This document shows, piece by piece, positions 2,217 through 46,663 of a DNA stretch of 64,000 nucleotides. Position 1 is the first letter of the stretch, and each line of letters starts with the position of its first letter. The notes beneath the pieces are model-generated. The model did not search any database, was not told where the DNA came from, and saw nothing but the letters and a program-made list of their open reading frames with translations. A program made the position numbers and the translations under genes. This stretch comes from an uncultured Pelagibacteraceae bacterium. Lineage in GTDB: Bacteria; Pseudomonadota; Alphaproteobacteria; Pelagibacterales; Pelagibacteraceae. Where the stretch lies: positions 36,796 through 100,795 of the forward strand of contig CACNTB010000003.1 of NCBI GenBank assembly GCA_902623305.1, in the 5' to 3' direction.

Positions 2217-2302
2217 TGGTGCCCTCGGCCAGACTCGAACTGGCACTCCGCAAGCGGCAAGGATTTTAAGTCCTTTGTGTCTACCAATTTCACCACGAGG
2301 GC
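2217..2302 (-). tRNA. tRNA-Leu (anticodon UAA), CCA encoded
   Basis: Minus strand GCCCTCGTGGTGAAATTGGTAGACACAAAGGACTTAAAATCCTT...GTTCGAGTCTGGCCGAGGGCACCA; paired acceptor stem, long variable arm, TTCGAGTC T-loop. Confidence 0.95.
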
Positions 2303-44329: not shown

Positions 44330-45232
44330 TTAATTTAGCAATTTTTCTTCTTTAGGAGCAAGCACTACTGCTAAAATTCCTCCTAAAACTATCAACGAGC
44401 TACCCGCTATCTCTCTCCAACCAAATGGTTCGTTTGTAAGTATACCTGAGCTTATTACTCCAACAACAATTTCTGCAAGAAAAAGAATTGAACATAAACC
44501 TGCTCCTAATTTACTTGGAGCCCAAAGTATTACTATTGCAGTAGGAATAAAATAAAAAACAGATATTACAAATAAAAAAGAAGACATAGAAATGAAAGCT
44601 TCAATAGCAGGCATTTCTCCAAGGTAATCAACTAAAAAAAATCCAGCAACTATATTAAATAAAGCTCCATAGAAAAAAAAAGAAAATACAATTGGAAATA
44701 CGCCGTCAGTTTTAAGAACTTCAAGTCTTATCATTCCTCCAGCAAATATTGCACCACCCGCTAAAGCCAACCAATCTCCAGCATTTTCTGGAAGGGGTAT
44801 AATAGTTTGTTTACTAAAAACTATCCATAAACCACCAAGAGCTAGGCCCAATGTAAGCACTCTTTCTAAACCCGGTCTTTTTTTTAAAAATAATATTTCA
44901 AAAATTGTCGTCCAAATTGGCGTCATATAAAATAATATTAAAGCTCGAACAACATCAGTTAAAAGAAAACTTAAAGCATAACAAATAAAACCACCACCAA
45001 CTAGTAAACCAGTGATGGGTAACTCTAAACCTGTTTCTTTTTTTTTAATTAATCTCCAAATAGCTATTGGTAACAATATTAAAAATCCAATTATCATTTG
45101 AGCAATAGTTCCCCATCCACCTGTGAGACCACCTTCAACAAGTATTCTTTGTGGTAACCAATAAATTCCCCAAGACCCAGCTGAAAAAGCTAAAGCAAAA
45201 GCAATTTTAAAATGATGAGGGTGTCTAGTCAT
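44330..45232 (-). CDS. EamA/DMT family transporter
   Basis: About 10 TM segments, repeated EamA layout, GLGLALGGLWIVF-like motifs. Confidence 0.85.
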   Translation of the reverse strand: MTRHPHHFKIAFALAFSAGSWGIYWLPQRILVEGGLTGGWGTIAQMIIGFLILLPIAIWRLIKKKETGLELPITGLLVGGGFICYALSFLLTDVVRALILFYMTPIWTTIFEILFLKKRPGLERVLTLGLALGGLWIVFSKQTIIPLPENAGDWLALAGGAIFAGGMIRLEVLKTDGVFPIVFSFFFYGALFNIVAGFFLVDYLGEMPAIEAFISMSSFLFVISVFYFIPTAIVILWAPSKLGAGLCSILFLAEIVVGVISSGILTNEPFGWREIAGSSLIVLGGILAVVLAPKEEKLLN

Positions 45233-45423
45233 TAATATAAATTAGTTATAATTAAAAATTGATTTAGAAGATTATAAAAGTTTTTGGCTATTACCTTAAA
45301 ATTTTTTGCAGATTTTGAATTAACGGGATAATATTAAATTATCAGGTTGTATTCAAATTATATATTCATCTTTTTTTAAAATAAATCAGTTGAAAAAAAA
45401 ATTTAATATGTAAAAATTATTTT

Positions 45424-45571
45424 AGGAGGTTATAACTATGAAGTCAGCACCAGATACTTAGCTGGTGAGAATCAAATCAATTAAAACTAGAAATAAAATC
45501 CATTATATGGATTTAGCCAAAGGGCATAAATAAGGGGAGCTCTTACGGCACAACCTAAGAGCGACCCCCTT
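45424..45571. other. hairpin-rich intergenic element with SD and 7-codon mini-ORF (MKSAPDT); possible structured RNA
   Basis: AGGAGG at 45424-45429, ATG at 45438 to TAG at 45461; hairpins CACCAG/CTGGTG, AAATCCA/TGGATTT and AAGGGG..CTCTTA/TAAGAG..CCCCTT. Confidence 0.4.
45532..45571 (-). terminator. possible terminator of the gamma carbonic anhydrase gene (compound hairpin)
   Basis: Minus strand AAGGGGGTCGCTCTTAggttgtgccgTAAGAGCTCCCCTTATTTAT starts ~5 bp after the stop codon. Confidence 0.45.
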
Positions 45572-45576
45572 CTTAA

Positions 45577-46089
45577 TTAAAAAATACTTTTAGAATATTT
45601 TTTCCAATTATCTTGGTAGTGATTAGTATTTTCCCAAACTGCTTTTTTTTCCTCTTCAGTTACTTCTCTAACTACTTTTCCTGGAGAACCAACTACTAAA
45701 GAGTTGTCAGGAATTATTTTATTTTCAGTGATAAGGGATTTAGCTCCGATAATACAATTTTTTCCAATATTGGCTTTATTTAAGATGACAGCTCCAATTC
45801 CAATTAAACTGTTGTCTCCAATAGTACATCCATGAAGCATAACTAAATGGCCAACAGTAACATTTTTTCCTACTTTTAGAGGGCAGCCCGGATCTGTGTG
45901 CAATACGCTTCCATCTTGTACATTAGATCCTTCACCAATATGAATATTTTCAATATCTCCTCTAAGAACTGCGTTAAACCAAATACTTGTATTTTTTTCT
46001 AAAGTAACATCTCCTATTATTGTGGCATTAGGAGCTACCCAATTTTCGCCAGAGTTTTTTGGTTTTTTATCTTTTAAATCATAAAACAT
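45577..46089 (-). CDS. gamma carbonic anhydrase-like hexapeptide protein
   Basis: GDVTLEKNTSIWFNAVLRGDIENIHIGEGSNVQDGSVLHTD, VGHLVMLHGCTIGDNSLIGIGA. Confidence 0.93.
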   Translation of the reverse strand: MFYDLKDKKPKNSGENWVAPNATIIGDVTLEKNTSIWFNAVLRGDIENIHIGEGSNVQDGSVLHTDPGCPLKVGKNVTVGHLVMLHGCTIGDNSLIGIGAVILNKANIGKNCIIGAKSLITENKIIPDNSLVVGSPGKVVREVTEEEKKAVWENTNHYQDNWKKYSKSIF

Positions 46090-46108: not shown

Positions 46109-46663
46109 ATGCCCATTCAAACTCCAATATGTGATTTTGGTCAAAAAGCTATTCCATTTGAATTAAAATCTACTGAAAATAAAATTCTATCATTAAATGA
46201 TATCAAAGGTGAAAATGGAACTTTGATAATGTTCATTTGTAATCATTGCCCATATGTAAAAGCTATTACAAAAGAATTGGTTGAAGATTGTAGTGAATTA
46301 AACAAAATTGGTATCAGCTCAGTAGCTATCTGCTCAAATGACTTTATTAATTATCCAGATGACTCGTTTGATAACATGATTAAGTTTTCAAATGAAAATC
46401 ATTTCAATTTTCCTTACTTGCATGACGAAACTCAAGAAGTTGCTAAAGCATATGATGCTGTATGCACTCCTGATTTCTTTGGCTATAATAAAAATTTAGA
46501 ACTTCAATACAGAGGGCGATTAAAAGAGCTCAAAAAATTTATTCCAGTTAAAGACGGAGAAAGTGATCTACTAACAGCTATGAAGCAAATAGCTGAAACC
46601 GGAAAAGGTCCTAGAGATCAAATACCAAGTGCAGGCTGTGGTATTAAATGGAAGTATGATTAA
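46109..46663 (+). CDS. thioredoxin-like/redoxin family protein
   Basis: GTLIMFICNHCPYVKAITKEL, AVCTPDFFGY, C-terminal PSAGCGIKWK. Confidence 0.88.
   Translation: MPIQTPICDFGQKAIPFELKSTENKILSLNDIKGENGTLIMFICNHCPYVKAITKELVEDCSELNKIGISSVAICSNDFINYPDDSFDNMIKFSNENHFNFPYLHDETQEVAKAYDAVCTPDFFGYNKNLELQYRGRLKELKKFIPVKDGESDLLTAMKQIAETGKGPRDQIPSAGCGIKWKYD

What the first reader, a model, noticed from the sequence alone, without database searches (positions are those of the whole stretch)
45424..45571. Hairpin-rich orphan intergenic element with a strong Shine-Dalgarno and a 7-codon ORF
AGGAGG is followed by ATGAAGTCAGCACCAGATACTTAG (MKSAPDT*). Its stop lies at the edge of a CACCAG/CTGGTG hairpin, then come an AAATCCA/TGGATTT hairpin and a compound GC-rich stem (AAGGGG..CTCTTA/TAAGAG..CCCCTT). 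This looks like a leader-peptide/attenuator or structured RNA, but the next gene on this strand is over 500 bp away. The last stem may simply terminate the minus-strand carbonic anhydrase gene.
Basis: partly seen in the sequence, partly recalled or inferred. Interest (0 to 1): 0.6.

Follow-up and report, generated by a model that had tools for sequence, protein, structure and literature searches.

The report
Orphan SAR11 RNA with tiny ORF
A free-standing RNA gene of about 150 bases, absent from RNA databases, recurs in SAR11 ocean bacteria: it starts with a strong ribosome-binding site and a 6-9-codon gene ending Pro-Pro-Asp-Thr, ends with three folded hairpins, and never controls a neighbouring gene, so it probably acts on its own.

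Summary
The element is one copy of a conserved, unnamed RNA family of SAR11 (Pelagibacteraceae). A model of its three 3' hairpins alone found it in about 40% of 297 Pelagibacterales genomes, usually once per genome, and in a third genus; no genome of other orders matched. Sixteen of 22 base pairs show compensatory changes. All 50 intact model-found loci examined carry a strong Shine-Dalgarno and an in-frame ATG mini-ORF ending P-(D/E)-(T/I)-stop, with synonymous codons, all three stop codons and lengths differing by whole codons. Rfam has no match. The 2009 P. ubique RNA survey lists the corresponding intergenic region without assigning an RNA. The leader/attenuator reading is not supported: the next gene is convergent in 142 of 145 loci, across about 15 neighbour families. 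The 'carbonic anhydrase terminator' reading fails too: elsewhere that gene has no element beside it. An upstream inverted repeat with exact 45-nt spacing and promoter-like sites suggests an autonomous transcription unit that changes genomic location between lineages. Most likely it is a translated, dual-function small RNA whose 5' ribosome pauses at the PP(D/E)T-stop end. Transcription, pausing and target are not shown; a pure micropeptide gene remains the main rival.

The parts
45324..45400 (.). Upstream conserved module: CGGGA..TATTAAA, then half-site AGGTTGTATTCAA (45344-45356) and, exactly 45 nt on, TTGAAA (45390-45395); an inverted repeat with promoter-like -35 sites facing both ways. Probably promoter/operator (inferred).
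   Evidence: spacing 45 in 125 of 129 distinct upstream regions; GGTTGTATTCAA identical in 125 of 129; exact AGGTTGTATTCAA nearly unique per genome
45390..45417 (+). Candidate promoter: TTGAAA, 16 nt, AAAAAT with TG before it; would start the RNA just upstream of the Shine-Dalgarno (inferred)
   Evidence: consensus match; the same geometry was read by eye in other copies. Information content does not single out one -10.
45424..45429 (+). Strong Shine-Dalgarno AGGAGG (AAGGAGGT in most relatives)
   Evidence: AGGAGGT in 39 of 48 distinct copies
45438..45461 (+). 7-codon ORF MKSAPDT*; family consensus M..(P)P(D/E)(T/I)*, 6-9 codons
   Evidence: 50 of 50 structure-model loci; three stop codons, synonymous changes, in-frame length changes
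45448..45467 (+). CACCAG/CTGGTG stem at the ORF end; specific to this copy and close relatives, not a family feature
45496..45514 (+). Hairpin 2 (AAATCCAT/ATGGATTT)
   Evidence: all 6 modelled pairs have compensatory changes
45516..45525 (+). Hairpin 3 (GCC-AAAG-GGC); GCG/CGC and GAC/GTC in distant relatives
45532..45571 (+). Hairpin 4, compound stem with a 3'-side 2-3 nt bulge; probable 3' end of the RNA, possibly a terminator shared with the convergent gene
   Evidence: compensatory pairs in both stem halves; one search finds no canonical terminator with a U-run
45577..46089 (-). Convergent neighbour, gamma-carbonic-anhydrase-like protein (170 aa); not part of the element

Best explanation
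It is one copy of an undescribed, stand-alone small RNA gene of SAR11 that is also translated. Inferred mechanism: RNA polymerase starts just upstream of the Shine-Dalgarno from a conserved, probably regulated promoter module. A ribosome loads at the near-perfect Shine-Dalgarno next to the RNA's 5' end, makes a 6-9-residue peptide and pauses at its conserved P-P-(D/E)-(T/I)-stop end. The paused or recycling ribosome caps and protects the RNA, or gates its folding, while the three-hairpin 3' domain does the work in trans and the last hairpin ends the transcript. Shown by comparison: the structured RNA, the coding constraint and the independence from neighbouring genes. Inferred: start site, ribosome pausing, trans action. 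Rough confidence: autonomous structured RNA with translated mini-ORF 0.85; the ribosome-pausing step 0.35.
For: Covariation: 16 of 22 pairs with changes on both sides, 84 such cells against 19.3 +- 3.7 in shuffles; score 0.413 against 0.154, and far above slid versions; first model similar. The models held no ORF sequence, yet all 50 intact loci taken from them have Shine-Dalgarno + ATG + ...P(D/E)x-stop: 20 distinct ORFs, stops TAG/TAA/TGA, Thr ACT/ACA, Asp GAC/GAT or Glu GAA, 6 to 9 codons. Genus g12 and G009 carry MSPPET* and MSPPEI*. Downstream gene convergent in 142 of 145 loci, in most clusters within about 25 nt. Upstream module with fixed 45-nt spacing. PPD was found only among pausing PPX motifs, and PPE also pauses, in E. 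coli lacking EF-P (PMC4140641). Rfam: no match.
Against: No RNA or ribosome data were available. This very copy reads APDT, and three relatives (L186-L188) read LPDT, so the strong PP pause motif is not universal. The CCACCT that encodes Pro-Pro is also complementary to the Shine-Dalgarno (6 of 7 pairs in 37 of 48 distinct copies), so part of the PP conservation may be RNA pairing. No conserved unpaired seed was seen that would identify a base-pairing target. Twenty near-complete genomes of the genus lack it, so it is not essential. The G-U against A-C count favours the + strand only modestly (21 against 10).
Confidence: 0.55

Rival explanations
1. A micropeptide gene: the product is the short peptide, and the 3' hairpins only stabilise and terminate its mRNA.
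For: The peptide C-terminus is under coding constraint, with a strong Shine-Dalgarno and synonymous changes.
Against: Hairpins 2 and 3 lie outside any terminator and covary, which is more than a 3' end needs. The N-terminal half of the peptide is unconserved (MLILS, MNQM, MLRIT, MKS). Known short peptide antibiotics need nearby modification genes (from memory), and none recurs beside this element.
Confidence: 0.25
2. A small mobile or selfish intergenic cassette (MITE-like) in which the RNA is a passenger or part of its own maintenance.
For: Single copy at different places in different lineages; closed sites elsewhere (carbonic anhydrase gaps of -4 to 18 nt); patchy presence with remnants (G051, G164) and a decayed copy (G260).
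Against: One copy per genome, stable within a lineage, no terminal repeats or target duplications noticed, not found in viral contigs or phage records; strong purifying selection on structure and ORF.
Confidence: 0.1
3. Cis-acting leader peptide/attenuator, as first proposed.
For: Shine-Dalgarno, short ORF and following hairpins resemble amino-acid biosynthesis leaders (resemblance from memory).
Against: No downstream gene on the same strand: convergent neighbour in 142 of 145 loci, many neighbour families; no run of one amino acid's codons; no alternative antiterminator pairing common to the family.
Confidence: 0.03
4. Only the terminator of the minus-strand carbonic anhydrase gene, the rest being chance.
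For: The last stem lies 5 nt from that gene's stop codon, and in some relatives a T-run follows it on the minus strand.
Against: The same element abuts over a dozen unrelated genes, and orthologous carbonic anhydrase genes elsewhere have no such stem. It does not explain the Shine-Dalgarno, ORF, hairpins 2-3 or upstream module.
Confidence: 0.02

Closest known systems
Dual-function (coding) small RNAs such as SgrS/SgrT, Spot 42/SpfP, AzuCR (from memory)
   Same: Stand-alone small RNA with its own ribosome-binding site and short ORF plus structured non-coding part
   Different: Those encode proteins of about 15-43 residues; here 6-9 codons with only the last four conserved, the ORF is at the very 5' end, and no conserved base-pairing seed was seen
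Structured RNA candidates of 'Cand. Pelagibacter ubique' (Meyer et al. 2009, PMC2704228: rpsB, rpsL, ffh, SAM-V; pntA, babIM, rhtB, SAR11_0636 elements)
   Same: Same bacteria, GC-rich structured intergenic RNAs; the IGR holding this element (762678-763012) is in their Table 1 with 76 BLAST hits
   Different: No RNA was assigned to that IGR; the named motifs lie elsewhere and no short ORF was found described for them
Leader-peptide attenuators and arrest peptides (trp/his leaders, ErmCL, TnaC; from memory)
   Same: Strong SD, very short ORF, possible ribosome pausing at its end, hairpins after it
   Different: No regulated gene in cis; conserved PP(D/E)T-stop rather than codons for a sensed amino acid
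5' stabilisers made of a strong SD (STAB-SD, ermC leader; from memory)
   Same: Strong SD near the 5' end with a possible paused ribosome
   Different: Described on mRNAs, not on a separate structured small RNA

Membership tests
Rfam 15 families | Score above a family's gathering threshold | tested here: not met
   (window and 12 divergent loci): nothing on the element; one search lists only chance-level matches
Leader-peptide attenuator | Regulated gene downstream on the same strand | tested here: not met
   142 of 145 convergent
Leader-peptide attenuator | Mutually exclusive terminator/antiterminator conserved in the family | tested here: not met
   independent hairpins only; first hairpin not conserved
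Dual-function small RNA | Separate transcription unit | tested here: inconclusive
   Independence from neighbours and upstream promoter-like module shown; no transcript data
Dual-function small RNA | Translated ORF | tested here: inconclusive
   Coding constraint met; translation itself not testable here
Dual-function small RNA | Trans-acting non-coding function | not testable with these tools
   Needs genetics or RNA interactome data
Intrinsic terminator | GC stem followed by a run of U on the transcribed strand | tested here: not met
   none on either strand at this copy; the stem alone is conserved
tmRNA / SRP RNA / RNase P RNA | Identity with the known gene of P. ubique | tested here: not met
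   PMC2704228 Table 1 places all three elsewhere; no Rfam match on the element

The most novel reading that the evidence does not exclude
A ribosome-operated trans-acting RNA: a free small RNA whose activity or stability is set by a ribosome paused on a built-in 6-9-codon PP(D/E)T-stop ORF, so that it reports translation or EF-P status to the cell without controlling any adjacent gene.
Probability: 0.2. Interest if true: 0.88.

Novelty: new variant of a known kind. Interest (0 to 1): 0.7.

Why it matters
SAR11 are among the most abundant cells in the ocean and have very streamlined genomes with almost no spare intergenic DNA, so a single-copy, structure-conserved RNA gene that stays while its genomic address changes should be doing something worth its cost. 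The family is absent from Rfam and was passed over in the one RNA survey of P. ubique found here. It has one of the shortest conserved coding sequences (6-9 codons), and its ending matches a known ribosome-pausing motif, which makes its role directly testable by ribosome profiling and metatranscriptomes.

Tried and rejected
Rfam at gathering and at permissive thresholds: only chance matches. Viral and phage origin: three viral-contig pattern scans and a phage blastn found nothing. Other orders of the class: no match in the 289 genomes sampled beyond the two same-genus ones. Weak R1 hits in genera g2 and g4 (G015, G098) lack the ORF and look like chance. dif/Xer site for the upstream inverted repeat: P. 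ubique is reported to lack dif/Xer (PMC2731167), so rejected. An RNA hairpin for the upstream repeat: the left arm is almost invariant while the right arm loses pairing in many copies (as few as 5 of 13 pairs), so read as a DNA site. 6S RNA: no Rfam match and a different fold.

Full report
WHAT WAS CLAIMED AND CHECKED. The + strand of 45415-45580 folds far better than shuffles (z -4.7), and the - strand also does (z -3.4). The flanking genes are a gamma-carbonic-anhydrase-like protein (45577-46089, -) and a DMT-type transporter (44330-45232, -) (names are my reading). The next + strand gene is at 46109. Rfam has no match on the element at gathering threshold, and only chance-level ones at a permissive threshold.

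THE ELEMENT IS A CONSERVED FAMILY. A blastn search of 197 genomes of the family gave homologues of about 68-81% identity in the same genus and one in another genus (several short hits there are chance). I then built a covariance model, R1, from the three 3' hairpins only, without the ORF. In 297 genomes of the order R1 matched 117, at least two of them spurious. The more diverse model R2 matched 115, 77 of the 150 best genomes, nearly always at one place; second weak hits are the opposite strand of the same stem. Of 289 genomes sampled across the class only two, both of the same genus, matched. R2 with laxer filters found it in a third genus (G009). Twenty near-complete genomes of the genus had no convincing match with either the model or an ORF pattern.

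STRUCTURE. On the 30 sequences of A2, 10 pairs change on both sides. On the 31 more diverse sequences of A5, 16 of 22 pairs do, with 84 such cells against 19.3 +- 3.7 in shuffles. Hairpin 3 changes from GCC/GGC to GCG/CGC and GAC/GTC. A5 was fitted to the model, which favours the structure, but the covariation score of slid controls falls to 0.05-0.12 against 0.41. G-U cells outnumber A-C cells 21 to 10, a mild sign for the + strand.

THE MINI-ORF IS CODING-CONSTRAINED. All 50 intact loci taken from the structure-only models carry GGAGG, a spacer, ATG and an in-frame ORF ending P-(D/E)-x-stop: 20 distinct ORFs of 6-9 codons. Stops are TAG, TAA and TGA; the Thr codon is ACT or ACA; D is GAC or GAT, or E as GAA. 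Distant genera encode MSPPET* and MSPPEI*. L184 (G260) is a decayed copy without a clear ORF. Caveat: CCACCT, which encodes Pro-Pro, is also complementary to the Shine-Dalgarno (6 of 7 pairs in 37 of 48 distinct copies), so the PP part may serve RNA pairing as well; this window's copy has APDT and fits neither perfectly.

IT IS NOT A LEADER. In 149 distinct loci the next downstream gene is convergent in 142, same-strand in 3 (all about 90-300 nt away) and undetermined in 4, over 15 neighbour clusters (first pass). Where this carbonic anhydrase gene lies in other genomes, the gap to its neighbour is -4 to 18 nt with no element. The element therefore sits at different addresses in different lineages. 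Remnants of its left half remain in two negative genomes.

UPSTREAM MODULE. In the genus, 142 of 149 copies have GGTTGTATTCAA or a one-base variant upstream; a TTGA follows exactly 45 nt later in 125 of 129 distinct cases, usually 36-40 nt before the Shine-Dalgarno. In many copies the two form a perfect 13-bp inverted repeat; in others the right arm has diverged while the left has not, so this looks like a DNA site. On the minus strand the same sequence reads TTGAAT, 17 nt, TAgatT, a possible divergent promoter. AGGTTGTATTCAA is nearly unique per genome. Promoter and operator function are inferred.

LITERATURE. One genome is inferred to be P. ubique HTCC1062: its contig is 1,308,759 nt (the strain's size, from memory) and its hit at 762689-762770 falls inside the IGR 762678-763012 between SAR11_0785 and qacH. 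Table 1 of Meyer et al. 2009 (PMC2704228) lists that IGR with 76 BLAST hits and no RNA assigned, below their cut of 200. The other papers found in the held library did not show this RNA in the passages read. PPD occurs only among pausing PPX sites, and PPE also pauses, in efp-deleted E. coli (PMC4140641).

CONCLUSION. Shown: a new family of structured RNA with a coding-constrained mini-ORF, independent of its neighbours. Inferred: transcription, ribosome pausing at PP(D/E)T-stop, trans action. Main rival: a micropeptide gene with an elaborate 3' end.

Noticed in passing
window 45324-45400; L004, L010, L013 and others upstream of the SD: Inverted repeat AGGTTGTATTCAA...TTGAATACAACCT with exact 45-nt spacing and promoter-like sites facing both ways; the leftward -10 and start region (TAGATTCCCGATATC) is strongly conserved although no conserved leftward gene was found.
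   Followed up: partly
L210 (G051) and L217 (G164), around 1500: Genomes without the RNA keep the left half of the module (TTTATTAAATAGCTAGGTTGTATTCAATTATT) next to a gene end: probable remnants of a lost element.
   Followed up: partly
L184 (G260:C6:25789-25867): Decayed copy: hairpins recognisable, Shine-Dalgarno and start codon lost.
   Followed up: no
L189 (HTCC1062 inferred), DUF952 gene SAR11_0785 next to the element: SAR11_0785, convergent with the element, was 1.52-fold up (p 0.051, late) in iron limitation (PMC2864753); a weak lead to the condition.
   Followed up: no
L012 1891-1977: Glycine riboswitch about 400 nt from an element copy.
   Followed up: no
window 2220-2302, minus strand: The only Rfam hit in the window is a tRNA.
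   Followed up: no
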